64,000 bases of DNA, from assembly GCA_019358945.1 (NCBI GenBank), contig JAHHIE010000001.1, positions 186,001-250,000 of the forward strand, written 5' to 3'. Under the pieces are notes generated by a model, which had not been told where the DNA came from, ran no database searches, and was given only the letters and a program-made list of their open reading frames with translations. Source of the DNA: Stenomitos rutilans HA7619-LM2. Lineage in GTDB: Bacteria > Cyanobacteriota > Cyanobacteriia > Leptolyngbyales > Leptolyngbyaceae. The translations under genes were made by a program, and so were the position numbers. This document shows positions 7,539 to 59,312 of the stretch, one piece after another (positions within the stretch are counted from its first letter, which is position 1; each line of letters starts with the position of its first letter).

Positions 7539-8177
7539 ATGCCGTCCGCTCGACTCGCACAGCAGATTCAGTTTGTGATTGAAGTTGATAAGCTCAAGCA
7601 AGTGCTGCGACAAACCTTACTCACGAATGGCTCCCGTCGCGAAAATAGCGCTGAGCATTCCTGGCACATTGCGCTGATGGCGATCGTCCTGGCCGAATAT
7701 GCACCAGCCTCGATCGATGTCCTGCATGTGATCAAACTGCTGCTGCTGCACGATCTGGTGGAAATCGATGCAGGCGACACATTTTGCTACGACGAGCAGG
7801 GCAACCAGAGCAAAGCCGATCGCGAAACTCAGGCCGCCGATCGCCTCTTTGGTTTGTTGCCACCCGATCAGGCTGTAGCTTTTCGTGCCTTGTGGGATGA
7901 GTTTGAAGCCCAGGAAACGCCTGCTGCCCAATTTGCAGCCGCGCTCGATCGCCTTCAGCCCCTCCTCAACAACCAGCAAACGGGCGGACATACCTGGAAA
8001 CTGCACCAGGTCACCAGCGATAAAGTGCTTCAGCGGATGGCTCCCATTCAGGTTGGCGCGCCAGCATTGTGGACCGTTGTGCAACAGGTCATTGATGACT
8101 GCATCGCAGCGGGTCATCTAAAAGAACCCACGACGGAAGAAACTGGGGTCGGTAATTTGGATGCGGCCATACCCTAA
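7539..8177 (+). CDS. HD-domain phosphohydrolase (YfbR/HDDC2-like)
   Basis: A 212-residue protein with an HD metal-binding domain: H40 (SAEHSWH), H71-D72 (LLLHDLVEIDAGD) and a downstream Asp near residue 137 (ALDRLQPLLNN). This matches the HDDC2/YfbR group, many of which are 5'-deoxynucleotidases acting on nucleoside monophosphates. The substrate here is inferred. AGGAG at about 7528 precedes the ATG. The last 60 bp overlap tail-to-tail with the DUF2808 gene on the other strand, so the C-terminal 20 residues share DNA with that gene. Confidence 0.88.
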   Translation: MPSARLAQQIQFVIEVDKLKQVLRQTLLTNGSRRENSAEHSWHIALMAIVLAEYAPASIDVLHVIKLLLLHDLVEIDAGDTFCYDEQGNQSKADRETQAADRLFGLLPPDQAVAFRALWDEFEAQETPAAQFAAALDRLQPLLNNQQTGGHTWKLHQVTSDKVLQRMAPIQVGAPALWTVVQQVIDDCIAAGHLKEPTTEETGVGNLDAAIP

Positions 8178-8684
8178 GAATTGACCGTAGGGCTGTTCTC
8201 CTGTGGGATAGGCTGTCACGCCATACAGGTATACGCCACCCACATCTGGGTTGCGAACAGCGTAGAGCCCAATTCTGACTACACTGCCCGGTGCTACAGG
8301 TTCGTTAAACGTGACCATGATCTCACGGGTTTTCGGATCTTGAATGACCTCCCTGAGTGGTACTCTCACTTCACGATCGCCTGTTTTCGCCCCCACTTCT
8401 GTTTGGCTGACATCAAACCGGGCACGATCGGGGCCATCTTCTGGCGCAATCATGACCTTTTGCAACGACTCACCAGCGTTCTTTGGTATCGATAGCGTGA
8501 AATAGTAAGTCGATCCCCAGAAATATGCCGTTTTCTGTGTTGCCGTTGCCCCTTCAAACCGGGGTGGCTGCACGAAGTAAGTTCTGCCGTCTGCTAACTG
8601 CACAGCCTGCGCTGGTAAGCCAAGACACAAACCACTTGCCGATAGCGCTAGCACGGCACTTACGCACCATTTGCTGATGTTCAT
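8118..8684 (-). CDS. DUF2808 exported protein, copy 1
   Basis: A 188-residue protein with a signal peptide (cleavage near LPAQA at residue 27), followed by the DUF2808 pattern: VQLADGRTYFVQPPRFEGATA, an STYYFTLSIP strand, ESLQKVMIAPEDGPD and a C-terminal YLYGVTAYPTGEQPYGQFLGYGRIQ. DUF2808 proteins are periplasmic or envelope proteins of cyanobacteria with no assigned activity. It lies in tandem with a paralogue at 8771-9349 on the same strand. Its 3' end overlaps the HD-domain gene by 60 bp. Confidence 0.9.
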   Translation of the reverse strand: MNISKWCVSAVLALSASGLCLGLPAQAVQLADGRTYFVQPPRFEGATATQKTAYFWGSTYYFTLSIPKNAGESLQKVMIAPEDGPDRARFDVSQTEVGAKTGDREVRVPLREVIQDPKTREIMVTFNEPVAPGSVVRIGLYAVRNPDVGGVYLYGVTAYPTGEQPYGQFLGYGRIQITDPSFFRRGFF

Positions 8685-8770
8685 GTTGCCTTTTTCCTCG
8701 ATACTCGGTGGTAATGTTCAAAGCGAAGCCCTGATCTCAACACCTGCACCCCCTTTAGAGACATTCAGCT

Positions 8771-9349
8771 TTAGCGGCGAAAGGAAGAGTTTTGGCCGTT
8801 ATCGTAAATCTGGATACGGCCATAGCCTAAGAACTGCCCATAGGCTTGCTCTCCAGGTGGAAAGGCGGTGACACCATACAGGTAGGTACCGCCTATATCT
8901 GGATTACGGTCAGCGCGCAGCCCAATGGTCAGTGTCTTACCAGCCGCCACCGCAGGATCAAACATGACGGTAATCGCCTGTGTTTTTGCATCTTGAGTGA
9001 CCGTCTGTAGCGGTATCTTGGTCCCTTCTCGTTCGGCAGTGCCTTCAAATGCTTCGGTCTGGTTGACATCAAAGTACACGCGATCGGGTGCTTCTTGGGG
9101 GGAGATGACCACTTTTTGCAGCGGTTCTCCCGCCGTTGCAGGCAGTGTCAGCGTGAAATAGTACGTTGATCCTAAAAAGCGAGCGGTTTTTTGCGTGGCG
9201 ATCGCGCCGTCTAAACGGGGTGGCTGCACAAAAGCGGTCGTGCCATTGGCTAATTTCACCGCTTGCGCTGAAACACCCACAAACCCAACTGCCCCCAGAG
9301 AAAGTGCGATTACCGCTGCCAAGCGCGATCGCCAGTTCATAGCTTGCAT
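8771..9349 (-). CDS. DUF2808 exported protein, copy 2
   Basis: A 192-residue paralogue of the gene at 8118-8684, with the same order of motifs (KLANGTTAFVQPPRLDGAIATQ, STYYFTLTLP, YLYGVTAFPPGEQAYGQFLGYGRIQ) and a signal peptide cleaved near VSAQA. The two evidently arose by tandem duplication and have since diverged over most of their length. The ATG at 9349 is used; a second ATG 9 bp later is possible. It is 86 bp upstream of copy 1, so a shared transcript is likely. Confidence 0.9.
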   Translation of the reverse strand: MQAMNWRSRLAAVIALSLGAVGFVGVSAQAVKLANGTTAFVQPPRLDGAIATQKTARFLGSTYYFTLTLPATAGEPLQKVVISPQEAPDRVYFDVNQTEAFEGTAEREGTKIPLQTVTQDAKTQAITVMFDPAVAAGKTLTIGLRADRNPDIGGTYLYGVTAFPPGEQAYGQFLGYGRIQIYDNGQNSSFRR

Positions 9350-9454
9350 CCGATTGCGTACACCTCTGTTCTAGCAGGTTCAGCCGCAAATTGCTGTCAT
9401 GCTTTGGATGAAGGCGATCGTGGTTGGCGATCGTGTTCAGCAGCACTAAAAGAA

Positions 9455-9483
9455 GTAGGGACATAGCACTGCCATGTCCCTAC
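9455..9483. repeat. Palindrome downstream of ndhH
   Basis: GTAGGGACATAGCACTGCC reads into its near-perfect complement, giving a 29-bp hairpin 27 bp beyond the ndhH stop. It has no clear T-run. Its GTAGGG/CCCTAC ends resemble the core of the 102-bp element, so it may be a repeat, a processing hairpin or both. Confidence 0.6.
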
Positions 9484-9510
9484 CTGCCGTGTCCCTAACG
9501 GGATTATCGG

Positions 9511-10695
9511 TTAACGATCAACTGATCCCATCACCACGTCAACGCTGCCCAGAATGGCAAAAATATCAGCAACCTTGTTGCCTCTCACCAAACTGGGAAG
9601 CACCTGGAGGTTATTGAAATCACCCGGACGGATTTTCCAGCGCCAGGGGAAAACATTATCGTTCCCAACGATGAAGATCCCCATTTCGCCACGACCCGCT
9701 TCCAGTCGGACGTAATGTTCGCCTTTGGGAATCTTGAACGTAGGTGCAATCTTTTTGCCAATGTACTGGTAGTCAAACTCGTTCCATTCTGACTTCGGTC
9801 CCGACTCGATGCGCTTAGCCTCCAGATTCTCGAAAGGCCCGCCCGGTAGCCCCGCGATCGCCTGCTGAATGATCTTGATCGACTCGCGCATTTCTGCCAT
9901 CCGTACCACGTAGCGTGCGAGGCAGTCACCCTCCGTTGCCCAGGCAACCTTCCAGTCAAAGTCGTCGTAACATTCGTAGTGATCCACTTTACGTAAATCC
10001 CACTGCACGCCAGAAGCCCGGAGCATCGGCCCAGAACAACCCCAGTTAATCGCTTCTTCGCGGCTCAGCACGCCAACCCCTTCCAGCCGACGCCGAAAGA
10101 TGGGGTTGTTGGTAATCAGCCGCTCGTACTCATCCACGACTGGCATCATATACGTGCAGAAGTCGGAGCACTTATCAATCCAGCCGTAGGGCACATCCGC
10201 CGCCACGCCACCAATACGGAAATAGTTGTGATTGACCATCCGGTAGCCCGTCGCCGCTTCGTACAGGTCGAGAATCATCTCGCGATCGCGCAGGGTGTAA
10301 AAGAATGGCGTTTGGGCACCGAGGTCAGCCACAAAAGGGCCAAGCCACAACAAATGGTTGACCAAGCGTCCCAGTTCCAGCATGATGACGCGAATGTAGC
10401 TAGCGCGTTTGGGTACGGGGACGTTGGCTAATTTTTCGACTGCATTGACGGTAATAGCCTCATTAAACATCCCGCCATAGTAGTCCCACCGACTGGTGTA
10501 AGGGACGTACATGATGTTGGTACGGTTTTCAGCAATCTTCTCCATGCCTCGATGCAGGTAGCCCAACACAGGCTCACAGTCGATCACATTTTCACCATCC
10601 AGCGTCACAACCAGGCGAAAACAGCCGTGCGTCGAGGGATGGTGAGGACCCATGTTGATCACCATAGGTTCTGTCTTCGTCTCGATCATTGTCAT
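9511..10695 (-). CDS. ndhH: NAD(P)H-quinone oxidoreductase subunit H
   Basis: A 394-residue NuoD/49-kDa-type subunit of the thylakoid NDH-1 complex, which carries electrons from ferredoxin to plastoquinone in cyclic flow, respiration and CO2 uptake. It has the family's start region [20 protein letters not shown], the quinone-pocket stretch, [20 protein letters not shown], and the C-terminus [23 protein letters not shown]. Length is normal for cyanobacteria. It is transcribed alone, divergent from rsmH. MTMIETK is the predicted N-terminus; the ATG two codons later is also possible. Confidence 0.97.
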
Positions 10696-10947
10696 AGCTG
10701 GACAATCTCCCGTGTGAGCAGTTGGTTCGTTTTTAGTTGCTGGCTGTTAGCGAAGAGCATATCTAACACCTAACCACTAAAAACCAAGAACTTATGCGTG
10801 TTCTCTTAGATTATACGGACTGTTCGCCCAGAGAAGGTGTCTAAGCTGACGACAACGCATCAAGCTTTGAGCGGAAAACGATAGAGTAGGGTCGAACGCT
10901 CTTGTCTTTCCTGACTCTTGACTCCTGATTCCTCACCTACCCCTTGC

Positions 10948-11874
10948 ATGGCATCTCTACAAGATTCACCCCACGAGGCGACTGATTTACCTGATCCGTC
11001 GCTAGCTGCCGCTTTTGTGCATATTCCCGTCCTGAGTCGTGAGGTGCTAGACGGGTTGGGTGTGCGATCGGGCGGGCATTACCTGGATGCAACGGTGGGT
11101 GGAGGTGGACACAGCGCGTTGATTCTGGCAGCGGCTCCAGAGGTACAGGTGACGGCGATCGATCAAGATGAGCAAGCGATCGCAGCCGCCCAGACCAAAT
11201 TGTCAGCCTTTAACGGGCGCGTTCAGTTTCAACACACCAATTTTGCGCATTTTCAGCCAGGAGAGCAGCAGTTCGATGGCATCTTGGCAGATTTAGGCGT
11301 GAGTTCTGCGCAGTTTGACATTCCCGATCGCGGCTTCAGTTTTCGCCACACGGCCCCGTTGGATATGCGGATGAATCAGCAGCAAGACCTGACTGCTGCC
11401 GCGATAATTAACCACTGGGATGAAGCGAAGCTGGCAGACATCTTCTACACCTACGGTGAAGAACGGCTTTCACGCCGCATTGCCCACCGCATTGTCGAAC
11501 GCCGACCGTTTGAAACGACGACAGAACTGGCAGAGGCGATCGCCTACTCGGTGCCCAAAGCCTATCGCTACGGGCGCATTCATCCCGCCACCCGTGTTTT
11601 TCAGGCGTTGAGAATTGCCGTCAACCAAGAATTAAGCGTGTTGGAAACCTTCATCGATCGCGCCCCTCACTGGCTCAAACCGGGTGGCAAACTCGCTATC
11701 ATCAGCTTCCACAGCCTCGAAGACCGCATTGTCAAACATCGCTTCCGTGAGTCGGAGCGACTAAACGTGCTGACTAAAAAGCCCATTCTGCCGCAGGAGG
11801 ATGAAGTGGCGGAAAATGTGAGAGCGCGATCGGCTAAGTTGAGGATTGCAGAAAAGGTGAGGGGGGAGGCGTAA
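10948..11874 (+). CDS. rsmH: 16S rRNA (cytosine(1402)-N(4))-methyltransferase
   Basis: A 308-residue SAM-dependent methyltransferase (MraW) that N4-methylates C1402 in the ribosomal P site. It has [13 protein letters not shown], the SAM motif [54 protein letters not shown] and the end motif [18 protein letters not shown] start it at the ATG at 10948 ([10 protein letters not shown]); a TTG 30 bp upstream lies in a short-repeat tract (gactcttgactcctgattcc) and is unlikely. It is not next to mur/fts genes, as is usual in cyanobacteria. Confidence 0.96.
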
Positions 11875-11935
11875 GGGGAGAGGAGTCAGGAGTCAGGAGT
11901 GAAGTGCAGAATAGGAGGTTTTCAGCCTAAATTTT

Positions 11936-12229
11936 GACTTTCCGAGTTCACGCCTCGACACTCCGGCCTCAAAGCTCGACGTTCCGAGTTCCAAGCTCCA
12001 TCGTTCGAGTTCCAAGCTCGACGTTCCGAGTTCCAAGCTCCATCGTTCGAGTTCCAAGCTCGACGTTTCGAGTTCTAAGCTTGGTACACCAGCCTCCAAG
12101 CCCCACCTTTCCCCCTCCAAGCTCGACACTTCGAGTTCAGCACTTCACCTTCCGAGTTCAAACCTCGACCTTCCGATCTCCAGGCTCGATACACCAAGTT
12201 CAAAGCTTGCCCACTCAAACTCCAAGCCC
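11936..12229. repeat. 21-bp tandem repeat array 2 (14 units)
   Basis: Fourteen 21-bp units, typified by GACGTTCCGAGTTCCAAGCT plus C, fill the space between rsmH and the O-methyltransferase gene. Some neighbouring units alternate exactly (GACGTTCC... / CATCGTTC...), as expected from duplication of a pair. The 21-bp period leaves reading frames open on both strands, which produces a spurious 110-codon extension of the downstream gene and an antisense frame rich in LELE/SSLE. Just before it (11882-11901) are GTCAGGA heptamers. Confidence 0.93.
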
Positions 12230-12263
12230 TTGCCTTTTATCCTTTACCTTCTCTCCTCTCCCC

Positions 12264-12926
12264 ATGTCCAGCCAATCAATCAACCTCGACGATCGACTTT
12301 ACAATTACTTCCATTCGGTTTCCTTGCGGGAACCGGAGATTCTCACCCAGCTACGGCAAGAAACTGCCCAGCATTCTATGAGCCGCATGCAGATTTCGCC
12401 AGAGCAAGGACAGTTCATGGCGCTGCTGGTGCAACTGATGGGCGCGAAGAAAACGCTGGAAGTTGGCGTGTTTACTGGCTACAGTTCTCTGGTAGTGGCG
12501 CTGGCCTTGCCAACTGATGGCAAAGTGGTGGCCTGTGATGTGAGCGAAGAGTATACGGCGATCGCCCGCCGCTACTGGCAGCAAGCTGGAGTTGCCGACA
12601 AAATTGACCTCCACATTGCCCCCGCGCTAGAAACGTTGGATGCATTGCTGGCAGCAGAACAGGCAGGCACGTTTGATTTTGCGTTTATTGATGCGGATAA
12701 GGGTAATTACGAGGGTTATTACGAGCGATCGCTGCAACTGGTGCGATCGGGCGGACTGGTGGCGATCGATAATGTGCTCTGGTATGGGCAAGTCGCTGAT
12801 CCCACAGTGCAAGACAACAGCACAAACAGCATTCGTGCCTTTAACCAGAAGTTGCATCAAGATGAACGAGTGAGCCTCAGCATGGTGCCGATCGGCGATG
12901 GATTGACGTTAGCCAGGAAGCATTGA
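12264..12926 (+). CDS. Class I SAM-dependent O-methyltransferase (CCoAOMT-like)
   Basis: A 220-residue methyltransferase of the caffeoyl-CoA/catechol O-methyltransferase family. Motifs seen: LLVQLMGAKKTLEVGVFTGY (SAM loop), VVACDVSEEYTAIARRYW, FDFAFIDADKGNYEGYYE (metal-binding Asp pair region) and GGLVAIDNVLWYGQV. The family transfers methyl to a catechol-type hydroxyl with a divalent cation; the substrate is unknown. The start is the ATG at 12264 (MSSQSINLDDRLYNYF). The frame is open further upstream only because of the 21-bp repeat array, and that extension is not homologous to the family. Confidence 0.93.
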   Translation: MSSQSINLDDRLYNYFHSVSLREPEILTQLRQETAQHSMSRMQISPEQGQFMALLVQLMGAKKTLEVGVFTGYSSLVVALALPTDGKVVACDVSEEYTAIARRYWQQAGVADKIDLHIAPALETLDALLAAEQAGTFDFAFIDADKGNYEGYYERSLQLVRSGGLVAIDNVLWYGQVADPTVQDNSTNSIRAFNQKLHQDERVSLSMVPIGDGLTLARKH

Positions 12927-13015
12927 AGTGCAGAGAGTCATCCGTAGACTTGAAACGTCACTGAAGGTATTCTGAGCGTCGCTGTTGAGATTCATAGTGC
13001 GATCGGTTGAACGAC

Positions 13016-13057
13016 GCTGGCTGATCGAACCCTCGGAGTGTTGAGCGATCGGCCAGC
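13016..13057. terminator. Possible hairpin between convergent genes
   Basis: GCTGGCTGATCG at 13016-13027 pairs with CGATCGGCCAGC at 13046-13057 with one G-T wobble, over an 18-base loop. It lies between the O-methyltransferase stop and the stop of the POTRA-CHAT gene on the other strand. There is no T-run, so a terminator role is only suggested by position. Confidence 0.4.
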
Positions 13058-13115
13058 CAATGCCAAATCCCTGGTTTAAAACTTCAAGGTTCGCGAAAGC
13101 CCAGCCTCAGTTGCA

Positions 13116-16100
13116 CTATTCCCATTCGCCATAGAGGTTAAACGCAGCCCAATTATAGGGCGTTTGCCAGCGCTCATCTTGCCATAGGGACAGTTGGGCT
13201 GATCGAAGCGCTTGAGCGGGAGAAAGCTTGTTTTTGTACATGTTTCGGTAGAACAAGGTCATCAACTTTTCAGTTGCCTCGTCATTGACGCTCCATAAGC
13301 TGACAACCACTCGCTCTGCTCCAGCCGCCATTAAGCCACCTGTTAGCCCAGTCAAGCCTTCCCGAATCAGGTCTCCACTTAGCCCTGTACGACATCCACT
13401 CAACACAACCAGATCGGCTGCGGACAAATCCATCTTGAGAGTAGCGGCGGGTGTGATCGAGCCTTGCTGTAGTTCGCCATTTTTACGAATGGCTGATAGC
13501 ACAATGCCCGATTGTTCTGGAGCTTTGATGTTAAAGAATCCATGTGTGGCAAAGTGGATGCGGCGATACTGTTTTAACGTGTCACTAATCGCGGTTTCAT
13601 AATTGGCATCAAAGCCCAAGAACTGCGATCGCTGCTCTGGAGCCACAAACTGAGAAATTTGCTCCACTTCTTGTTTCGTCCCAGGCAATGCATTGTAAAT
13701 CGGCTCCCCTGGTTGGGACAGAATCGTGTGAGTCTGGCGTTTGGATCGTGCCAGAGCCGTTTGATTGACCCGTTTATCTTCGTAGTTGAATACTGGGTCA
13801 GCAAAGACTGCCAGTTCTTTCGTTGGCGCTGGACGGCTGCTTTTATTCTGGCGAAGTTCGACCATTGCTGAGGCAGAGAGCAAGTTAACAACCTCATGAT
13901 TGACTAGCAGGGGTTGCATAGAAGGAGCAAACTCACCCTTGAGTGCATCAGGGTTGGAGTCAGATGTTGCAGCAGGATCAGGCAACGTGCTGAAGGGAAT
14001 GTATTGCAGAATGCCATCACCCACAACAAGCAACCGTTTCTGTCCCAGTTGGTCAGCGATCTGCCCCAAAATCATGGCGCTGAGTTCTTTCCCGACTTTG
14101 GCAGTGGTTTGAGGACGAACCCTGCCTGTTGGAGCCGTGAGCAGATCGTAAAATTCTCGTCCTTTAGCTTCAATGGTTGCGCGTCCACGCAAAGAGTAGG
14201 TCTTGAGGGAATCTTTAGACACTACCCATACATAGCTTTCCTTGTCTCCCAAAAAATATTCCAGGAGCAGAGTCTTGTCATCCAGAAGTGCCTGAATTTC
14301 GGGCAAATGGGCTGGACGAGTCCGCCCTGGCTGACGATTTGAGTTGGTCGGCTTGCCGTTGGGTGGGTTCTCAGACGTTTGATTGGCTGGAACCGTATCA
14401 CTGGCTCGGAACACATCAGTTGTCACAGTACGGGCACGCTCACTTGCCTCAAAAGCTCCAGTGTCGTCGGGCTGCTGTTGTTTGAGCAGCAAGTTGATGT
14501 AGAACTCAAAATAGTTCTGCTTGCAGGCGAAGTACGTTGAGATGGTACTGCACGGATTAGCCGGATCGGGTTTGTCTGAAGTGGCTGTGTAGGGATCTAA
14601 GGTTGCACTGGAGAGAACAAAGCTAGCCGCGATCGAACCCCTATTACCTCCTCCCTCAGCCTTCAGCCCATATCCGTATTTCATTTCGGCAGAGGCGAAT
14701 CCAGGTCCATAGCTTTTTCCAGTCAGAGTAGTAGGAGGCCGTTCGCTATTGGCGATCGCTGTCTCAATCCCAGCCTTTGCTTTAGCAGCACTACCAAGCA
14801 GCAGTTCCGCTTTAGCAATCCCATAATTGGCTTCAGCACTTCCTAGCGTACTTCTAGAGGTAGGAGGGAGTTTTAGGAATTGATCGTAGGATGCACGAGC
14901 GTTTTCAGGTTCGTTGAGGGCTTCATAGGTTTTACCAACGGCTAGCAGTCTGGAAGCGCTTTGGGCAGATTGGAAGAACGGCAACAGCGAAGCAAAGTCT
15001 GATGATACAGAAACACTGACACTTGGAGTGGCAGAATTTTTGCTAGGAGTTGTCTGAGCGGCTGGATTTTGCCTGGAGCCAGATGCTTCTGCGGCTTGAC
15101 GGTAGGCTACTAGTGCCTCTCGGTAGCGACGTAATCTAAAATAAGCGGCTCCTTGCTGGTCGAACATGAGCGACTTGATCCAGGGAACGCTAGAGTTTAG
15201 CCAGTCGGGCTGCTTACCTGAACCGTTTTGAGAAGCATCTAACAGCTTCAGGACTTGATCTGAAATGAGCAACGATTGTTCATCATTATCTAACTTACCC
15301 AAACTACTTAAAAGTAATGAAACGTAAGGTCGAACCGCAGGGATTAGTGATTGCAAGCTTTTATCGTCTGTCTCACTCATTAATGCGCTCAATGATTCGC
15401 CAAGTCGTTGTGCCTGGGCCGCTACTTCTTGATCATTCTTCTTTTCTTCAAGCAAGAAACTTATGAAGTCTAAAGCCAGCTTAATAGACTGAGTAACTTT
15501 ATCGGTGTCCTTTTCATTAATCGAGTGCTTCCAGATATCCAATAACGCTTGAGTTTTCTTTTGCGCTTGTTCCGTATAAATTCTTCCTTCTACCGGATCG
15601 CCGACGCTGGAGTAAAGAAGATTGTACGGCAGTAAGATGAGAATTTCAGAGAGACGAGAGAACGTTTGGTTAATTTCATTTTCAAATTTTTCATAAAACG
15701 TTTTGTATTGCTCATGAAGTAACTGAGAAAGTTCCTCGTTCAATTTGGTGAGAGAATTTGTCAGGGCAGGATAGGCGTTATCGAGAACATAAAACGCTTG
15801 CTGATAGCTACCGATCGCTGCATAGGTAGTAGCTAGATCAAAAAGTAAAGCGGGCTTTTGCAAATAACTAACCAATCGATACGGCCCTAGCTCCTCCTTG
15901 TCGGTCAGGAAATAATACTTCTTGGGAAGTGAGCCAAACAGAACGAATGATTCAGAGGTTTCCTTAAGTGAAGACTGAATTTGAAATGCTCGCTGGTATG
16001 CATCTAATGCCTTATCAGGTTCTCCTAGCTGACGATAAACTTCTCCTAAACTAATATAAATAATGAGTTCCATCAAACGAGCATTAAAGCCTTGAAAGAT

Positions 16101-17225
16101 TTCTAATGCCTGATGGTAGGAATCTTTTGCCTGCCGATAGTTCTTGTTTTCTTTGTAGATATGGGCAATATTTTCCAAAGTGAACGCTTCATCTGCTTTA
16201 GAATGATTACTTCTTGCCAACTCAAGCACTTTTTTGTACTGATTAACCGCGCTAATGCTATTATCCTGACCTTGCAAATCGAGCGCTGCGGCGGCTGCCC
16301 GTTGTAAGGCAGTGTATTCATTAATCATTTTAAGGACAATCACCACCTTGCGCGGGTCTTGTCCCGGTTCTAAAGCAAGCCTCACGTCTTCAACTAGATT
16401 AAGACCAAGTATTCGTTTAATCTCAGCTTCAACTTTTGTACGATCGAAAACTTCTCCTACTTTAACGGTGGACTTAGCTAAAATTTCTTTGACAGACGTT
16501 CTTCCTCGCGCTGGAAACTCTCTAGCATCTTTTCGATCGCTATCTTTCTTCAAAAATTGAATCTGTATGCGCTCAATGATGCCTTCAGCTACAGCGAGTG
16601 TGACAATGCCATCTGGAGTTACTTTTGGTGCATCTATAACTTGCGACAAGACATAACCCTTATCCTGATACCACTTATTAACTTTCTTGATCCCCACCTG
16701 CAACTGCACCAGGTTTAGTACGCTGCCATACTGCTTGCTAAATGCCTCTGCAACCACAGCCTCTGGTAAAACGGTTGTTCCTTCTACCTGCACCTTTTGA
16801 AAGATTGGATTGAGTTCGACTTCAAACGTCACTCGGACTCCTAACGGAGTATCCTCTGGAATTGCTTTGACGTTACTAAAGTAACCTGTAGCAAAAATGG
16901 CATTGATGTCTTCCTGGAGTCGCGCCTTGTTTATTTTGTTTCCTGGTTTGGTTTGAGTGACTCGATAGACTTCATCGATAAACTTGACTGGTAGTTTCTC
17001 CTTGCCACTGCGAACCACAACCTCTGCAATGAGAACCCGAGGTTCGGGCTTGTTTCCATTGAAAGGCTTCAGTTGGGGTTGAGGTGAGCGGGAGCGATCT
17101 TGTGCCACTACTCCAACGATCGGGGTCACCAACGTCAAAAAGCTCGTCAGGACTGCGAGAAAACAGCAGAACAGTCTGAAGCTCCAACGTTGCCAAACCA
17201 AAAGCCGCCTGCGTCGCTCTACCAT
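13116..17225 (-). CDS. POTRA-TPR-CHAT fusion, putative periplasmic caspase-like protease
   Basis: Counting from the ATG at 17225 the protein has 1369 residues. The N-terminus (MVERRRRLLVWQRWSFRLF, then a hydrophobic stretch to about residue 42) is a signal peptide or anchor. Residues 63-139, 141-215 and 218-302 are three POTRA domains very like those of cyanobacterial Omp85 (LQEDINAIFATGYFSNVKAI, GVRVTFEVELNP, LVEDVRLALEPGQDPRKVVI). In place of the beta-barrel come TPR repeats (about 315-430 and 690-860) and a C-terminal CHAT domain. The CHAT dyad is H1228 (FATHGF) and C1278 (VLSGCRTG), so catalysis looks possible. Earlier ATG (17249) and GTG (17300) starts exist. It is divergent from the trypco2/CHAT-CHASE2 operon. 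The substrate is unknown. Confidence 0.9.
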   Translation of the reverse strand: MVERRRRLLVWQRWSFRLFCCFLAVLTSFLTLVTPIVGVVAQDRSRSPQPQLKPFNGNKPEPRVLIAEVVVRSGKEKLPVKFIDEVYRVTQTKPGNKINKARLQEDINAIFATGYFSNVKAIPEDTPLGVRVTFEVELNPIFQKVQVEGTTVLPEAVVAEAFSKQYGSVLNLVQLQVGIKKVNKWYQDKGYVLSQVIDAPKVTPDGIVTLAVAEGIIERIQIQFLKKDSDRKDAREFPARGRTSVKEILAKSTVKVGEVFDRTKVEAEIKRILGLNLVEDVRLALEPGQDPRKVVIVLKMINEYTALQRAAAAALDLQGQDNSISAVNQYKKVLELARSNHSKADEAFTLENIAHIYKENKNYRQAKDSYHQALEIFQGFNARLMELIIYISLGEVYRQLGEPDKALDAYQRAFQIQSSLKETSESFVLFGSLPKKYYFLTDKEELGPYRLVSYLQKPALLFDLATTYAAIGSYQQAFYVLDNAYPALTNSLTKLNEELSQLLHEQYKTFYEKFENEINQTFSRLSEILILLPYNLLYSSVGDPVEGRIYTEQAQKKTQALLDIWKHSINEKDTDKVTQSIKLALDFISFLLEEKKNDQEVAAQAQRLGESLSALMSETDDKSLQSLIPAVRPYVSLLLSSLGKLDNDEQSLLISDQVLKLLDASQNGSGKQPDWLNSSVPWIKSLMFDQQGAAYFRLRRYREALVAYRQAAEASGSRQNPAAQTTPSKNSATPSVSVSVSSDFASLLPFFQSAQSASRLLAVGKTYEALNEPENARASYDQFLKLPPTSRSTLGSAEANYGIAKAELLLGSAAKAKAGIETAIANSERPPTTLTGKSYGPGFASAEMKYGYGLKAEGGGNRGSIAASFVLSSATLDPYTATSDKPDPANPCSTISTYFACKQNYFEFYINLLLKQQQPDDTGAFEASERARTVTTDVFRASDTVPANQTSENPPNGKPTNSNRQPGRTRPAHLPEIQALLDDKTLLLEYFLGDKESYVWVVSKDSLKTYSLRGRATIEAKGREFYDLLTAPTGRVRPQTTAKVGKELSAMILGQIADQLGQKRLLVVGDGILQYIPFSTLPDPAATSDSNPDALKGEFAPSMQPLLVNHEVVNLLSASAMVELRQNKSSRPAPTKELAVFADPVFNYEDKRVNQTALARSKRQTHTILSQPGEPIYNALPGTKQEVEQISQFVAPEQRSQFLGFDANYETAISDTLKQYRRIHFATHGFFNIKAPEQSGIVLSAIRKNGELQQGSITPAATLKMDLSAADLVVLSGCRTGLSGDLIREGLTGLTGGLMAAGAERVVVSLWSVNDEATEKLMTLFYRNMYKNKLSPAQALRSAQLSLWQDERWQTPYNWAAFNLYGEWE

Positions 17226-18041: not shown

Positions 18042-20654
18042 ATGGAACTGTTCGAGCTATATCTTGCTCCTGGTGAAGCCGCCAACCAATTCAAAGTAAC
18101 GGTGAGCCAGTCTTCTGTGGGGGAAGGCTCGGTTGAGTCACTACTACCATTTTTTGAGGGGGAGCATGACTGGCGGACAACCCTACTCAAAACGATGGAG
18201 TCCACCGCCTTCGATCCTGACAACTTTCAAATCCCAAATGAGCAAGCCTGGATGGTTCATGCAGGTCTTCTTTCCAACGATCGCCAGACCCTGCATCCCA
18301 CCCGATTGAAAACGATTGGGCGATCGCTCTATCAGGCGTTGTTTCCCCAAGACAGTGTGGTCAAGCAACGGTTGCAGTCTGCTCTAAGCTTTGCCGAGAG
18401 CAAGGATATACGCTTGCATATCCGCCTAAAATTTGATGCCAATTCTACTCCGCGATCGCGCTTGGCAGACTATCCCTGGGAACTGATCCACGATGGTCAA
18501 CGGTTTCTCGCGCAACATCAGGTGACGTTCTCCCGCTACATCGCGCATGACACGGTTCCGCCAAACCTACCAGCAACCAAGCAAATCACGGTTTTGCTGG
18601 TCTCGTCCTCTGCATCCGATGTGGCTCAAGGGTTGAAGCCAATCTCCACAACCGAGCAACAGGCCATTCAGCAGGGATTGGAAAAAGCAACGCAAACAGG
18701 AGACATCCGCTTAGTGCAACTGGAGCGCTCAACGCTCAGGCATTTGAGGGCATATCTGACAGAACAGACTGGAGATGCCTACCCTCAGGTACTGCACTTT
18801 GATGGGCACGGCTTGTTTGGTAAGCGCTGTGTCAATGAGCAGTGCCGCGCTATCCATAAGGGAATCAAAGTTGAGCGTTGTCGAATTTGCGGGACAGCAT
18901 TGCCAGATGCTCAGGGCTATCTGGTCTTTGAGCAAGAAGACGGGAAGCCAGACTATGTTAGTGCAGCGGCATTAGGGGCATTGCTCCAACAAACGAGTTT
19001 TGCTGATGGCACTCGCTCATCCAACAGAATTGCCTTGACAGTGCTGAGTGCGTGTCAATCTGGGATGTCTGTTGTAGGCGATTCTCTCTTTAATGGTATG
19101 GCCCAAAACTTGATCAGCCATCGGGTTCCTGCGGTCGTGGCGATGCAATATTCCGTCAGTGTGCAATCAGCAGCCCAGTTCGCAGAACAGTTTTATCGGT
19201 CATTAGGACAAAAAAATGCGCTGGCGATCGCGGTAAGCCAGGGTAGAGAAGCAATGGGTGCAGAAGGAAACCAATGGTATCGTCCGGTGCTTTATTTGCG
19301 CTGGCGAGACAATGGCGGGGGGCAGTTGTTTGCAATCACCCACCCGTCTGATGTTTTCTCACCAACAACCAAAGCTTCTAAACCAATTGAGCAAGCTGTT
19401 GGCTGGCTTGGACGCTCCTGGTATCGCTGCGTTTCGATCGTAAGTTTGGGGGTAACGAGCATTGTCTTTGGATTACGCCTTCAAGGAAATTTGCAACCTT
19501 ATGAGCTAGCGGCGTTTGACAGGTTACTCAACATACGAATCAATGACCAACCGGATGATCGGTTGTTGATTGTTGAGATCAATAAGAATGACGTGAAGCG
19601 ATGGGGAGGAGGACAGACAAAGGAGCGAGCCACTTTGTCAGATGACGTCATTACTAAACTATTGCAAACGCTTGACCGTTACGAACCGAAGGCGATCGGG
19701 CTAGATGTCTATCGCCCCTTTGCTGCTGAACCCAATAGCGAACTAGAGCGGCGTTTGAGAACAGATCAAAAAATTGTTTCTGTCTGCAAAGCTTCTGATC
19801 AGTCAGATTACGAAGCTGATGCCTATGCTCCTCCTCCTGAGCTGCCATTAGAGCGTCAGGGTTTTAGTGATTTTATTTACCTGGAAGATGGTGGAGCTAA
19901 TGGTGGAGTTATCCGGCGCTATCTGTTTGCAATGAAACCAGATGCGACATCTCCTTGTAAGGCTGGGTTTGCCTTTAGCTTTCAGTTAGCGATGAAATAC
20001 TTGAGCGTTGAGCCAGAATTAACTGATGAAGGATACAAACTTGGTGATACTCTTTTTACTCCCATGAATTACCCAGCAGGGGGGTATTGGAACTTCGACG
20101 ATCGGGGGCATCAAGTATTGCTTGATTATCGGGCACCAGAAGGTTCAGTCAGAAAGATTGCTACGACCAAAACGCTGACTGAGATTCTTGAAGAAAAAGG
20201 TATTAATGAGGACTTAAAGAGACGGATTATCATGGTTGCGGTCACCGATCCAGAGTTTCGGGACTATTGGCATACACCTCTCAGTGATAACCCAGTACCG
20301 GGAATTATCATCCATGCACAAATGGTTGGTCAGATCCTGAGAGTTGTTGAGGATAAGCAGCGTATGATCTGGTACTTGCCTTCAGCAGCAGAATTACTTT
20401 GGGTTGTGGGTTGGACAGTCGGCAGTAGTTTACTTGTTTGGAAAAGCTACCGTTTTCTACTATTTGCTTTATCCCTGGCAACGGTATCGAGTATTTTGGT
20501 AGCAAGTTGTACTCTTGCATTTGTTCTTCTCCGACTCTGGCTGCCACTGATCCCTACATTATTTGTCTTAATTCCTACAGGTAGTTTTGTTTTTCTAGTC
20601 AAGTTTTACGCCGACAAAAGCTTCACAGAATCTGATACTGAGGGACGTGTATGA
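18042..20654 (+). CDS. CHAT-CHASE2 membrane protein (caspase-like protease with periplasmic sensor)
   Basis: An 870-residue protein. Residues 125-430 form a CHAT domain with the dyad H256 (LHFDGHGLFG) and C338 (LSACQSGMS). Between the two lies a four-cysteine insert (C263, C268, C280, C283) that looks like a zinc ribbon. A membrane helix spans about 461-479. Residues 485-775 form a CHASE2 domain (AFDRLLNIR, DDRLLIVEINKNDVKRWG, PKAIGLDVYRP, PVPGIIIHAQMVGQIL). Three more membrane helices follow (about 783-850). CHASE2 is an extracytoplasmic sensor, so the layout is cytosolic protease plus periplasmic sensor. No kinase or cyclase is attached. The stop overlaps the DUF928 start (ATGA). Confidence 0.92.
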   Translation: MELFELYLAPGEAANQFKVTVSQSSVGEGSVESLLPFFEGEHDWRTTLLKTMESTAFDPDNFQIPNEQAWMVHAGLLSNDRQTLHPTRLKTIGRSLYQALFPQDSVVKQRLQSALSFAESKDIRLHIRLKFDANSTPRSRLADYPWELIHDGQRFLAQHQVTFSRYIAHDTVPPNLPATKQITVLLVSSSASDVAQGLKPISTTEQQAIQQGLEKATQTGDIRLVQLERSTLRHLRAYLTEQTGDAYPQVLHFDGHGLFGKRCVNEQCRAIHKGIKVERCRICGTALPDAQGYLVFEQEDGKPDYVSAAALGALLQQTSFADGTRSSNRIALTVLSACQSGMSVVGDSLFNGMAQNLISHRVPAVVAMQYSVSVQSAAQFAEQFYRSLGQKNALAIAVSQGREAMGAEGNQWYRPVLYLRWRDNGGGQLFAITHPSDVFSPTTKASKPIEQAVGWLGRSWYRCVSIVSLGVTSIVFGLRLQGNLQPYELAAFDRLLNIRINDQPDDRLLIVEINKNDVKRWGGGQTKERATLSDDVITKLLQTLDRYEPKAIGLDVYRPFAAEPNSELERRLRTDQKIVSVCKASDQSDYEADAYAPPPELPLERQGFSDFIYLEDGGANGGVIRRYLFAMKPDATSPCKAGFAFSFQLAMKYLSVEPELTDEGYKLGDTLFTPMNYPAGGYWNFDDRGHQVLLDYRAPEGSVRKIATTKTLTEILEEKGINEDLKRRIIMVAVTDPEFRDYWHTPLSDNPVPGIIIHAQMVGQILRVVEDKQRMIWYLPSAAELLWVVGWTVGSSLLVWKSYRFLLFALSLATVSSILVASCTLAFVLLRLWLPLIPTLFVLIPTGSFVFLVKFYADKSFTESDTEGRV

Positions 20655-21493
20655 ACCCCTGGCTTAAGCAAGTCAAATTTGTCCATGCTTTGGCAATTGC
20701 TATTGTCATATCTACAATTTATGTTCCTGAAGCATTAGCTAAGCCAGCTCGATCGCCAAATCTTCTAGTGCAAATTCTTCGCTTTTTTACTCCACGCGAT
20801 AATCGTAATCGGGAGTCGCCCGCTGGACGACAAAAAGGTGGGGCCACTCGCGATCGCTGTCCCACGATCCAACCACCCCAACCACCCCTAACGGCACTCG
20901 TGCCTGCAACACCTGATGGAACTCCATTTGTCGAAAAGACGATTCAAGACCGTCCCATCTTCTGGTTTTATGTTCCCTTCGTGCCAACCTCAAGCCGCAA
21001 TGCTGAATTTGCGATCTTTGATGAAAGCGAAAAGGATGTCTATGCTGCAAAATTTCTCCTCACTCAGCAACCAGGCATTGTGCGTCTGCAACTACCCAAC
21101 ACGATGCCAGCTTTGCAGGAAGGCAAACGGTATCGCTGGGTTTTTTCCGTTATTTGTAATGCAGCCAACCGCTCTGGGGACGCAACCGTTAATGGTTGGG
21201 TACAACGAGTGTCATTAACCCCAGAACTCAACCGTCAGTTGCAACAGAAGAATGAGTTAACAGTGATTTCAGCTTATGCCAATGCAGCATTATGGCACGA
21301 GATGTTGACCGCTATGGCAGAGTTTCAACGGCAAAAGCCTCAAAATTCTCAAGCTAAAGCAACCTGGATGTCTACATTACATCTGCTTGGGCTGACCAAA
21401 CCCGTCTCAGATCATTGGAACACCTATCGACTGCCGCTAACCTCTCCACTTCCGCAAACCTCGGGGGGTTTCACCAAGAATCAAGCAATGTGA
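20651..21493 (+). CDS. DUF928 exported protein
   Basis: A 280-residue protein with a signal peptide (hydrophobic to about residue 30, ALAKPA) and the DUF928 pattern: PLTALVPATPDGTPFVEKTI, RPIFWFYVPF, AEFAIFDESEKDVYAAKF, GKRYRWVFSVICN and a helical part with ANAALWHEMLTAMAEF. DUF928 genes are repeatedly found next to CHASE2 and CHAT genes in cyanobacteria, to my knowledge, without a known activity. It overlaps the upstream gene by 4 bp, so it is translationally coupled. The last dozen residues (QTSGGFTKNQAM) are encoded by a repeat-like sequence, suggesting the original stop was lost or moved. Confidence 0.9.
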   Translation: MNPWLKQVKFVHALAIAIVISTIYVPEALAKPARSPNLLVQILRFFTPRDNRNRESPAGRQKGGATRDRCPTIQPPQPPLTALVPATPDGTPFVEKTIQDRPIFWFYVPFVPTSSRNAEFAIFDESEKDVYAAKFLLTQQPGIVRLQLPNTMPALQEGKRYRWVFSVICNAANRSGDATVNGWVQRVSLTPELNRQLQQKNELTVISAYANAALWHEMLTAMAEFQRQKPQNSQAKATWMSTLHLLGLTKPVSDHWNTYRLPLTSPLPQTSGGFTKNQAM

Positions 21494-35227: not shown

Positions 35228-36004
35228 ATGGAAGCTAAAGTAGCAGACTCAAAAGCCTTGTTAGTTGTTGACGAGAAGCCCCTCTCCCTAAGGCAATGTT
35301 TGCGGTATTTACAGGCGGCGGGTAAGCTGCAAGGTTTTGTTGGGGATATCTTGCGCCAATATGTACTGGAGCAAGCGCTAGAGACTAGACAAGACATTGA
35401 AATTAGCCCTGCGATCGTCGAGCAGTCGGTAATCGATTTCCGGTTGCAGCAGCAACTTACCGATAGTAAGGTTTTTCAGGAGTGGCTGAACCGCAATGGC
35501 TTAACCTACGAGCAGTTTCATAGTCAAATTGTTGGCAGTTTTAAACTCGAAAAGTTGAAAGTACTTGTCACGCAAGAGCGTGTGCAAGAACACTTTATTG
35601 AGCGTAAAGTGTTTTTCGATCGCGTCGTGCTATCGCGGATTGTGGTGGCTAGCAAAGAGCTAGCAGAAGAACTGTACAGTCAAATTACGGAAGGCGCGCC
35701 TTTTGAGCAACTGGCGCGGGAATACTCAACAGCGGATGAACGCGTGGCAAACGGCATGATGGGCCCCGTGAGTCGAGGTACCCTGCCTGATGCGTTGAGA
35801 GCCGCGATCGATTCGTCTAGCCCAGGCGAACTGGTGGGGCCGATCGAAGCGGAAAAGTTTTGGGCAATCTTTCGAGTAGAACAGTTCTTACCCGCCACCT
35901 TAGAAGATACCCAGTTGCAACAGGCTTTACAAAACGAACTGTTTGAGCGCTGGCTGTCAGAGAAAATTCAGACCATGACCGTTAAGCTACAGGTGAACGA
36001 ATGA
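35228..36004 (+). CDS. Parvulin-type peptidyl-prolyl isomerase
   Basis: A 258-residue protein. Residues 1-120 form a SurA-like helical part (QLTDSKVFQEWLNRNGLTYE, QFHSQIVGSFKLEKLKVLV). Residues 125-220 are the parvulin domain (VVLSRIVVASKELAEELYSQ, GAPFEQLAREYSTADERVAN, GPVSRGTLPDAL, GELVGPIEAEKFWAIFRV). There is no signal peptide, so it would act in the cytosol. Its stop overlaps the ABC exporter start by 4 bp (ATGA), and a huge exported protein follows. It is therefore likely a chaperone-isomerase handling the exporter's proline-rich cargo before or during export, which is inference. Confidence 0.9.
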   Translation: MEAKVADSKALLVVDEKPLSLRQCLRYLQAAGKLQGFVGDILRQYVLEQALETRQDIEISPAIVEQSVIDFRLQQQLTDSKVFQEWLNRNGLTYEQFHSQIVGSFKLEKLKVLVTQERVQEHFIERKVFFDRVVLSRIVVASKELAEELYSQITEGAPFEQLAREYSTADERVANGMMGPVSRGTLPDALRAAIDSSSPGELVGPIEAEKFWAIFRVEQFLPATLEDTQLQQALQNELFERWLSEKIQTMTVKLQVNE

Positions 36005-38595: not shown

Positions 38596-38793
38596 TGGGC
38601 AGTTTTGTGTGCTGTTGGTTTGAAGTCGATCGTGTTGGATTGTGCTTCAACAGATGGCGAGTTTACTGTTGAGAATCAAACTGCTTAAACACTCTGGTGT
38701 AGTGACTTAAGCTTGTTGTAAATTGCGCGATCGAGTGAGCTGCGATCGCTATTTTCGATCGTGTTTAACCTTTTATTTGGTATTAGGTTAACT

Positions 38794-38841
38794 ATTTGAA
38801 GCTTCTACGTAGAAACAATTTGAAGCTTCTACGTAGAAACA
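38794..38841. promoter_or_regulatory. Tandem palindromic boxes upstream of the adhesin gene
   Basis: Two exact 24-bp copies in direct tandem, each containing TTGAAGCTTCTACGTAGAAA. Each copy holds the 12-bp perfect palindrome TTCTACGTAGAA (38803-38814 and 38827-38838) and an overlapping GAAGCTTC palindrome. They lie 120-167 bp upstream of the adhesin ATG. Two dyad sites spaced 24 bp apart look like a tandem operator for a dimeric regulator. No known regulator is assigned. Confidence 0.6.
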
Positions 38842-38960
38842 CCAGGTTTTCAGTGCATTCAACAGAATCTTCGTAAAGATATACGAAAATAACCATTGGC
38901 TTTGTTATCAAACGTGGAGGGGATGGGCACTATAGCAGAGCCATGTAGGTGTAGACAGCA

Positions 38961-53745: not shown

Positions 53746-53749
<4 letters not shown>
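52325..53749 (+). CDS. OprB-like outer-membrane porin of the cellulose-type operon
   Basis: About 474 residues. After a signal peptide (MRLHPFLHLGLTMAILLTAG, cleaved near STALAE) and a linker comes a beta-barrel pattern of the carbohydrate-selective porin type: LNELYFAGSLPSLPTLRFVV, GLMDLTSYFDRNSFAKDG, YIPNLKLGLFGRYGRYTNLA, GLNFLDIFLPSDRLGLGYGR, PDVLELFYDFRITPNLRAAV and a terminal RVRTDFDI strand. It would be the outer-membrane exit for the polysaccharide, replacing the barrel of BcsC. The start is uncertain, with ATGs at 52241 and 52268 also possible. Its stop overlaps the TPR gene start (ATGA). Confidence 0.82.
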
Positions 53750-56223
<2,474 letters not shown>

Positions 56224-56415
56224 AGGGTTTTTAGTTCTGAGTTTTGAGTTTTGAGTTAGAGAGCGGTCAGCGGTCAGCGGTCAGCTTGCTTCCAACAACT
56301 AACAACTCCTCTTCTACCTTCTACCTTTTGCCTTCTACCTTCTGCCCTCATCCCTCATTCCCCGTCCCTCTGCTCCCCCTTCTGCCTTTTACCTTTTGCT
56401 TTCTACCTTCTACCC
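56224..56415. repeat. Short-repeat gap between the TPR and bcsB genes
   Basis: tgagttt, ggtcagc, caactaa, ctaccttctacctt and tgctccccc heptamer-type runs fill the whole 192 bp. The same motif families occur inside the TPR gene, in speA and in other gaps. Confidence 0.8.
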
Positions 56416-58785: not shown

Positions 58786-58847
58786 GAGGAGAGGGGGCAG
58801 GGGGCAGAGGGGATCGGGAGATGGGAGAAGGTAACAGGTAAAAAATC

Positions 58848-58894
58848 AGGACTTATGTACTTTGACCAAAACCTCTGAGGTTTGCGTAAACCCT
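58848..58894. mobile_element. Degenerate MITE relic
   Basis: AGGACTTATGTA and TGCGTAAACCCT bound a 47-bp piece containing CCAAAACCTCTGAGGTTTG. It looks like a much reduced relative of the TAGGACTTACGCA elements. Confidence 0.45.
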
Positions 58895-58901
58895 AAGAAT
58901 A

Positions 58902-59233
58902 AAGCTCGACTGATTAAGTTCTAAGCTCAACCGATCGCATTACAAGCTCGACTCAGCAAATTACAAGCTCAGCCTATCTAATCACAAGCTCAACCTATCT
59001 AATTACCAGCTCAACCTATTCAATTACAGGCTCGACTCAGCAAATCACAAGCTTGACCAATTCGATTTCAAGCTCAGCCTATCAAGTTACAAGCTCAGCC
59101 TATCAAGTTACAAGCTCAGCCTATCCAATTTCAAGCTCGACTCAGCAAATTACAAGCTCGACCTATCCAATCACAAGCTCAACCTACTCCACTCCACGCT
59201 CGGCCTATCACTAAGCTCGACTTACCCAATTTC
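58902..59233. repeat. 21-bp tandem repeat array 3 (16 units)
   Basis: Sixteen units close to AAGCTCAACCTATCCAATTA plus C; all are 21 bp except one of 17 bp (59196-59212). Two adjacent units (59070-59111) are identical, as after a recent duplication. The array fills most of the gap between bcsB and bcsA, and the following 59245-59300 is a C-rich tract (tcccctgcc units). It shares the CAAGCTCGAC core and the period with array 2. Confidence 0.93.
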
Positions 59234-59312
59234 AAACTCAAAACGCCCCTGCCTCCCCTGCCTCCCCTGCCTTCCCTGCCTCCCCTGTCTCCCCCCTTCC
59301 CCCTTTCCTCCC

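What the first reader, a model, noticed from the sequence alone, without database searches (positions are those of the whole stretch)
13116..17225. Omp85-type POTRA domains fused to TPR-CHAT instead of a beta-barrel
The first 300 residues follow the cyanobacterial Omp85/BamA POTRA pattern closely (for example INAIFATGYF and EPGQDPRKVV), but no barrel follows. A barrel-assembly receptor module has apparently been re-used to place a protease in the periplasm. The POTRAs could dock onto real Omp85 or onto its clients, which would link outer-membrane assembly state to proteolysis.
Basis: partly seen in the sequence, partly recalled or inferred. Interest (0 to 1): 0.75.

Follow-up and report, generated by a model that had tools for sequence, protein, structure and literature searches.

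The report
Omp85 docking domains on a protease
Some cyanobacteria and their plasmids encode a predicted secreted protease whose front end is borrowed from Omp85, the machine that builds the outer membrane, without the membrane pore; two lineages appear to have taken that front end afresh from their own omp85 gene.

Summary
Window 13116-17225 (-) is one frame: signal-peptide-like start, three Omp85-type POTRA domains (E 1e-66 to the Alr2269 structure), TPRs, CHAT protease domain with His and Cys in place, no barrel. It is no misassembly: 8 of 388 class genomes carry the fusion (7 in one frame, 1 split over two contigs), as do two Calothrix plasmids. All 11 fusion POTRAs in the tree lie within Alr2269-type Omp85, in three places: a clade of nine (window, both plasmids) and two proteins each sister to their own genome's Omp85, with apparent remnants of the first barrel strands. 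The CHAT parts form one clade, so the head was apparently recaptured from host omp85 twice. The clade of nine keeps 56 of 61 Omp85-invariant residues in POTRA1-2 but 11 of 26 in barrel-proximal POTRA3. CHASE2 and DUF928 genes sit beside 7 of 10 fusion loci; elsewhere in this genome that pair accompanies a TPS-CHAT protein and an FhaC. Best reading: a mobile envelope protease module with exchangeable address domains, POTRA1-2 here directing CHAT to the Omp85 route. Docking, substrate and activity are untested. The fusion was not found in the papers searched.

The parts
13116..17225 (-). POTRA-TPR-CHAT fusion gene (1369 aa from ATG at 17225; frame open to 17300)
17100..17225 (-). signal-peptide-like N-terminus (MVERRRR ... 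VVAQ)
   Evidence: hydropathy peak and A-x-A-like site; same picture in the 11 fusion proteins looked at; simple hydropathy only, no trained predictor
16812..17045 (-). POTRA1 (residues 86-163 of the 1394-aa frame)
   Evidence: 30 of 35 Omp85-invariant residues kept in the clade of nine
16578..16808 (-). POTRA2 (165-241)
   Evidence: 26 of 26 Omp85-invariant residues kept
16317..16577 (-). POTRA3 (242-328), diverged, 11 of 26 kept; Omp85 TRE motif at 274-276 lost
15963..16274 (-). TPR repeats (343-446)
   Evidence: Pfam TPR models; helical in the model
14097..15962 (-). middle region (447-1068) without a clear family, probably a helical solenoid
13125..14096 (-). CHAT protease domain (1069-1392)
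   Evidence: PF12770 E 1.8e-62
13542..13544 (-). predicted catalytic His1253 codon (IHFATHGFF)
   Evidence: His in 41 of 41 aligned CHAT rows; catalytic role from knowledge of CHAT/clan CD
13392..13394 (-). predicted catalytic Cys1303 codon (LVVLSGCRTG)
   Evidence: Cys in 40 of 41 aligned CHAT rows, the other (G237) ending before it at a contig end
17580..18020 (+). Trypco2-domain protein, divergent neighbour
   Evidence: PF19631 E 1e-18
18042..20654 (+). CHAT-CHASE2 membrane protein (CHAT before the first TM-like stretch, CHASE2 between it and the C-terminal TM-like stretches)
   Evidence: PF12770 and PF05226; hydropathy
20651..21493 (+). DUF928 protein with signal-peptide-like start
   Evidence: PF06051 E 1e-53; N-terminus by eye

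Best explanation
The gene encodes a secreted caspase-like (CHAT) protease of a mobile envelope module whose usual partners are a CHASE2 membrane protein and a DUF928 protein, often with a second CHAT (fused to CHASE2) or a CHAT-TIR protein. Its N-terminal head is an exchangeable address domain. In this lineage the head is the POTRA1-3 array of Omp85. After Sec export POTRA1-2 should bind what the same domains of Omp85 bind (a Tic22-type chaperone, unfolded outer-membrane clients, or Omp85 itself), holding the TPR-CHAT part at the outer-membrane assembly route, where CHAT cuts a client or partner when the module is triggered. Shown by sequence: architecture, origin of the POTRAs, loss of the barrel, heads sister to own omp85 in two lineages, retention of POTRA1-2 with release of POTRA3, dyad present, recurrent neighbours, plasmid carriage. 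Inferred: periplasmic location, docking, protease activity, target, trigger, the cytosolic place of the partner CHAT and TIR domains. I favour a stress or conflict device over housekeeping because it is rare, patchy, partly plasmid-borne and accompanied by defence-type domains.
For: POTRA origin. Recurrence: 8 of the 45 genomes with this CHAT type among 388 class genomes, plus 2 plasmid records. Heads recaptured: G036 and G134 fusion POTRAs sister to own Omp85 at 100/100 (84% and 72% identity); one clade of nine fusions rejected, p-AU 1e-55; main clade plus G134 1.8e-41, plus G036 5e-57; while the CHAT parts of all ten fusions in the tree, with two contig-cut rows, form one side of a branch (100/98) and G134 sits with G002 and the C. 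brevissima plasmid at 97/95. Apparent barrel remnants in those two. Selective retention: 56 of 61 against 11 of 26, Fisher p 2e-6. Dyad. Address exchange in the same genome: TPS-domain CHAT (1974 aa) beside ShlB/FhaC, DUF928 and CHAT-CHASE2 on C30; plain TPR-CHAT, DUF928 and CHASE2-histidine kinase on C118. Partners; CHAT-TIR with a ThsB match 4.8e-63. Omp85/Toc75 POTRAs bind Tic22 chaperones (PMC4811774 and PMC12895209, passages read); the genome has one Tic22 match.
Against: No direct evidence for docking, activity or substrate. Recapture could be neutral recombination between two homologous stretches in one genome, or three independent fusions. Conservation of POTRA1-2 could reflect fold more than binding. 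In 34 of 45 genomes with this CHAT type no POTRA was found on it, so POTRA is not essential to such proteins. CHASE2 and DUF928 were not both found near 3 of 10 fusion loci: G072 has a DUF928 of another branch and no CHASE2 match, G007 and G237 have neither in the short contig stretches held. A CHAT or CHAT-TIR partner was seen at 5 of the 7 loci that have the pair, not at G021 or C. brevissima. G014 has lost its CHAT. One clade for the DUF928s of the fusion loci and two contig-cut kin is rejected (p-AU 1.9e-5). Rows in the conservation count are related, so its p value is too small.
Confidence: 0.5

Rival explanations
1. Housekeeping quality control of outer-membrane assembly, like E. coli BepA (TPR plus metalloprotease acting on the BAM complex): POTRAs bring CHAT to stalled barrels, which it degrades.
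For: Same logic of TPR plus protease at the assembly machine (BepA: abstract of PMC8423444); POTRA1-2 retained.
Against: Found in 8 of 388 class genomes and in 2 of 7 genomes of the window's genus; on plasmids; beside CHASE2 and DUF928 at 7 of 10 loci; a general need should give a broad, chromosomal distribution.
Confidence: 0.2
2. The POTRAs are no longer a binding module; they are a neutral spacer or folding aid, kept by recombination with omp85.
For: Gene conversion with omp85 alone could renew the head in G036 and G134; branches of the main clade are long; POTRA3 has relaxed; G014 keeps POTRA-TPR without CHAT.
Against: 56 of 61 invariant residues of POTRA1-2 kept across nine diverged proteins, whose mean pairwise identity is 61% and 50% in POTRA1 and POTRA2 against 34% in POTRA3.
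Confidence: 0.15
3. The POTRA head works as an export signal: it lets the protein be passed to the cell surface through an Omp85/FhaC-type barrel, as the TPS head would in the sister locus.
For: The same module elsewhere in this genome uses a TPS-CHAT beside an FhaC.
Against: POTRAs are the receptor half, not the substrate half, of such systems (established knowledge); no TPS domain in the fusion; no FhaC barrel by tblastn in the window or in the 11 stretches around fusion genes, with the C30 locus as positive control.
Confidence: 0.08

Closest known systems
Cyanobacterial Omp85 (Alr2269 / Tlr1789 type)
   Same: POTRA1-3; the Alr2269-type Omp85 rows are 43-63% identical to the window's POTRAs (one contig-cut row, G237 C22, 38%)
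   Different: no barrel; POTRA3 diverged; TPR and CHAT follow
Secreted TPR-CHAT proteins of cyanobacteria in CHASE2-DUF928 loci
   Same: CHAT with His/Cys, TPRs, signal-peptide-like start, neighbours CHASE2 and DUF928 (G096, G082)
   Different: no POTRA head; the fusions and their nearest kin have SGCRTG (SGCTTA in two) where the others have SACxxG
TPS-domain CHAT with ShlB/FhaC (C30 locus of the same genome)
   Same: same module genes, CHAT at the C-terminus, N-terminal envelope address
   Different: address is a TPS domain, presumably served by the separate POTRA-barrel transporter
BepA (E. coli)
   Same: what it may work like: periplasmic TPR plus protease at the barrel-assembly machine (abstract)
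   Different: M48 metalloprotease, no POTRA; not a relative
Thoeris-like and CHAT conflict systems
   Same: a partner CHAT-TIR protein on the Calothrix 336/3 plasmid matches ThsB in its TIR
   Different: no ThsA annotated nearby, no known defence system matched by the four window proteins; link is by neighbourhood only

Membership tests
Omp85 superfamily | POTRA domains of Omp85 type | tested here: met
Omp85 superfamily | C-terminal membrane beta-barrel | tested here: not met
   no Omp85/ShlB barrel match in Pfam, helical after POTRA3 in a moderate model, blast ends about 30 residues after POTRA3
CHAT proteases (PF12770) | CHAT fold by profile | tested here: met
   E 1.8e-62, 211.8 bits against cut-off 24
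CHAT proteases (PF12770) | His and Cys dyad | tested here: met
   His1253, Cys1303 aligned
CHAT proteases (PF12770) | proteolytic activity | not testable with these tools
   needs protein
CHASE2-DUF928-CHAT envelope module (my name) | CHASE2 and DUF928 genes adjacent | tested here: met
   window; also G002, G021, G036, G134 and both plasmids, 7 of 10 loci; not found at G072 (CHASE2), G007, G237 in the stretches held
BepA-type outer-membrane quality control protease | M48 zinc protease | tested here: not met
   no M48 match
Two-partner secretion substrate | TPS secretion domain | tested here: not met
   no PF05860 match in the fusion; present in the C30 relative
Known anti-phage system (PADLOC) | match to a system's core genes | tested here: not met
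   of the four window proteins scanned only weak TPR and SAVED_CHAT matches; ThsB match only in the plasmid neighbour

The most novel reading that the evidence does not exclude
A mobile envelope immune or suicide module that mimics the host's own Omp85: its POTRA head is renewed by recombination with host omp85, so that it keeps matching the local outer-membrane assembly partners, intercepts proteins or invaders that engage that route, and answers by CHAT proteolysis in the periplasm together with CHAT or TIR effectors in the cytosol.
Probability: 0.2. Interest if true: 0.87.

Novelty: new variant of a known kind. Interest (0 to 1): 0.7.

Why it matters
POTRA domains are mostly discussed as the receptor end of an outer-membrane barrel. 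Here evolution has run a domain-transplant experiment, apparently more than once, moving the receptor onto a protease, which hints at which POTRAs carry barrel-independent value (1 and 2) and which serve the barrel (3). If docking is confirmed it gives a natural probe for what Omp85 POTRAs bind in cyanobacteria and links outer-membrane biogenesis to caspase-like proteases and mobile conflict modules.

Tried and rejected
Misassembly or chance: rejected. POTRAs from FhaC or from the second Omp85-type paralogue: not supported. A single origin of all fusion POTRAs: rejected by AU tests. Viral carriage: a scan of viral contigs by six short exact peptide patterns gave no relative. The same kind of scan of genome contigs gave 7 loci, all with Omp85 genes and none with a fusion, so that scan missed the fusions. 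A structure of the middle and CHAT part from the single sequence was useless (pLDDT 35.5) and was not searched.

Corrections made on the way: one row (G237 C22) was labelled fusion but is an Omp85 with barrel start cut by the contig end, and one (G007 C88) was labelled Omp85 but is the N-terminal half of a fusion; searches use the right labels. Rows left out: the 3 FhaC rows from all POTRA trees; several Omp85 found but not put in (G004, G013, G025, G032, G050, G153, all 18, among others); 2 aberrant G237 Omp85 rows and the 3 paralogue rows from the conservation count (39 Omp85 rows used, 'kept' meaning the Omp85 residue in at least 60% of the nine main-clade fusions); 18 unfused CHAT rows of the 41 at hand from the second CHAT tree (23 used). 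The script ended with an error after the trees were printed; the missing motif table was made.

Not done: complex modelling with host Omp85; a POTRA check of the further CHAT-bearing genomes of the phylum draw (49 of 386 genomes, about half of them already). One search scored at most 3 candidates per genome, so counts are lower bounds.
Full report
What is there. The 1369-aa product has a signal-peptide-like start, POTRA1-3, TPRs, a long middle part without family, and a CHAT domain with His1253 and Cys1303 (numbering of the 1394-aa frame). Among solved structures the POTRA stretch is closest to the Omp85 POTRAs of Anabaena (3mc8, E 1.1e-66) and Thermosynechococcus (2x8x, 4e-59). An AlphaFold model made with seven Omp85 relatives (mean pLDDT 62, pTM 0.38, so moderate) shows three POTRA units and then helices; Foldseek puts 3mc8, 2x8x and 3mc9 first.

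Host. The window lies in contig C39 (467,546 bases) of a 7.28-Mb genome. One genome of the same genus, G001, has a contig of the same length (150,950) as the Stenomitos frigidus ULC18 record found, so the genus is probably Stenomitos or near it. The genome has its own Omp85 (C1, 851-aa frame), a second Omp85-type paralogue (C39, 802 aa) and three further POTRA proteins of 592-620 aa, of which the one tested (C30) is ShlB/FhaC.

Recurrence. With the C-terminal part (644 aa) as query, 45 of 388 genomes drawn from the class have a CHAT of this type at E 1e-45. Of the 45, seven have POTRA and CHAT in one frame (G000, G002, G021, G036, G072, G134, G237; the G237 frame runs off its contig within CHAT); in G007 the two halves lie at the ends of two contigs that share 10 bases, so one gene there is likely, not certain; three are cut by contig ends (G053, G130, G274); in 34 no POTRA was found on this protein (G096; G051, G055, G347 by their locus alone; 12; 18). 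Within the genus 2 of 7 genomes carry it. G014 has a POTRA-TPR frame of 667 codons and no CHAT in the 12-kb contig, next to broken CHASE2 frames. Among 174 plasmid records with any match, two hold at least 80% of the query in one place: Calothrix sp. 336/3 (NZ_CP011383.1, WP_052754573.1, annotated only as CHAT domain-containing protein) and C. brevissima NIES-22 (AP018211.1, BAY67028.1, hypothetical protein); Pfam finds POTRA, TPR and CHAT in both. Both plasmids are typed mobilizable; in G036 a TrwC-type relaxase gene lies about 3.5 kb from the fusion.

Where the POTRAs come from. In the 55-row tree all 11 fusion POTRAs lie among Alr2269-type Omp85 and apart from the second paralogue (100/100). 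Nine form one clade (98/93), with the window protein sister to the Calothrix 336/3 plasmid protein (100/98), while the five Omp85 rows of family f32, which I take to be Nostocales, group elsewhere (100/100); this speaks for transfer between lineages. G036 and G134 fusion POTRAs are each sister to the Omp85 of their own genome at 100/100 (84% and 72% identity). Forcing either into the main clade is rejected (p-AU 5e-57 and 1.8e-41), as is one clade for the nine fusions of the first tree. In the second CHAT tree (23 of 41 rows) all ten fusion CHATs, with the contig-cut G130 and G274, form one side of a branch (100/98), and G134 sits with G002 and the C. brevissima plasmid (97/95), both of which have main-clade POTRAs; in the first CHAT tree (39 rows) unfused G096 and contig-cut G053 join them in a 12-row group (100/97). 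So head and body have different histories: the head was replaced from own omp85 in two lineages, or fused anew three times. Nucleotide identity of aligned codons in G036 is 0.82-0.98 over residues 185-364 (late POTRA1 to POTRA3) and falls on both sides. After POTRA3, G036 and G134 still resemble the first barrel strands of their own Omp85 over about 55 and 30 residues; this is weak (57 then 23% identity in successive blocks of 30 in G036, 47% in G134).

What is kept. Of residues invariant (90%) in 39 Omp85 rows, the main clade keeps 30 of 35 in POTRA1, 26 of 26 in POTRA2 and 11 of 26 in POTRA3 (kept means present in at least 60% of the nine rows; Fisher p 2e-6 for P1+P2 against P3; rows are related, so the p value is only a guide). 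The POTRA3 motif TRE, in 38 of 41 Omp85 rows, is absent from 9 of 9 main-clade fusions, kept in G036 and changed in G134. The domain next to the barrel has been released; the two distal ones much less.

Neighbours. The window has, divergently, Trypco2, CHAT-CHASE2 and DUF928. CHASE2 and DUF928 genes are also adjacent in G002 (same strand: CHASE2, DUF928, fusion), G021, G036, G134 (with Trypco2) and on both plasmids, that is at 7 of the 10 fusion loci. The exceptions: G072 has a DUF928 of another branch and no CHASE2 match in its 10.6-kb contig; G007 and G237 show neither in the short stretches held. A CHAT fused to CHASE2 was seen in the window, G002, G036 and G134, and a CHAT-TIR protein whose TIR matches ThsB on the Calothrix 336/3 plasmid; none was seen at G021 or C. 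brevissima. The unfused G096 and G082 and the contig-cut G053 and G130 have the same pair. DUF928 of 7 of 8 fusion loci falls in one 10-row group (91/89, not strongly supported) with G053, G096 and G130. Elsewhere in the window's genome the module occurs with other heads: C30 has DUF1822, CHAT-CHASE2, DUF928, a 1974-aa TPS-domain CHAT and an ShlB/FhaC; C118 has TPR-CHAT, DUF928 and a CHASE2-histidine kinase. No FhaC barrel was found in the window or in the 11 stretches around fusion genes.

How it most likely works. Sec export, a periplasmic CHAT protease, and an N-terminal head that decides where in the envelope it acts: TPS for the surface route, Omp85 POTRA for the assembly route, plain TPR otherwise. 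Toc75 POTRAs bind Tic22 chaperones and preproteins directly, and a cyanobacterial Tic22 has been crosslinked to Omp85 (PMC4811774 and PMC12895209, passages read; the primary paper was not held). The genome has one Tic22 match. Hence the most economical partners of POTRA1-2 are Tic22 and unfolded clients. This step, the activity and the trigger are inferred.

Literature. In the held open library no paper has both POTRA and CHAT domain, two-partner secretion and CHAT domain, or POTRA with caspase, fusion and cyanobacterial. POTRA with tetratricopeptide, cyanobacteria and protease gave 9 papers, CHAT domain with cyanobacteria and signal peptide 1, at least four of CHASE2, CHAT, TPR, cyanobacteria and conflict 69 (15 listed), Tic22 with Omp85 and cyanobacteria 21 (15 listed), BepA with TPR, protease and BAM complex 5: listings seen, only the papers named in this report opened. 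DUF928 occurs in one paper (listing only). Trypco2 is described as a conflict-system part in PMC7159879 and PMC10907252, CHAT in the latter (passages); a CHASE2 domain on a variable component is mentioned in PMC8195603 (passages); PMC8283722 on cyanobacterial orthocaspases has no POTRA (passages). None of the passages read mentions a POTRA-CHAT fusion. Papers outside the library were not searched.

Verdict. A real, recurrent and, in the papers searched, undescribed architecture: a new variant of the cyanobacterial secreted CHAT module with a head taken from Omp85.

Noticed in passing
L176 (own genome C30:1-18000), 7759-13683: A TPS secretion domain is fused to a CHAT protease (1974 aa) beside ShlB, DUF928, CHAT-CHASE2 and DUF1822: a CHAT protease presumably exported by two-partner secretion.
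   Followed up: partly
L162, 18105-19208: CHAT-TIR protein on a Calothrix plasmid next to CHASE2; its TIR matches the Thoeris ThsB model at 4.8e-63; no ThsA is annotated in the stretch read.
   Followed up: partly
window 13392-13394 and relatives: The fusion CHATs and their nearest kin have SGCRTG (SGCTTA in two) at the catalytic cysteine where the other TPR-CHATs have SACxxG, mostly SACETG or SACQTG; a charge change next to the nucleophile.
   Followed up: no
window 35228-47165: Rotamase, C39-type ABC transporter and a 2734-aa cadherin/FG-GAP repeat protein in a row, like a type I secretion set with its adhesin.
   Followed up: no
window 53746-63902: Cellulose locus: TPR protein, BcsB-like, CelA and a response-regulator protein.
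   Followed up: no
L088, 7939-10711: In G014 the fusion gene is truncated before CHAT and meets broken CHASE2 frames, a decayed copy of the module.
   Followed up: partly
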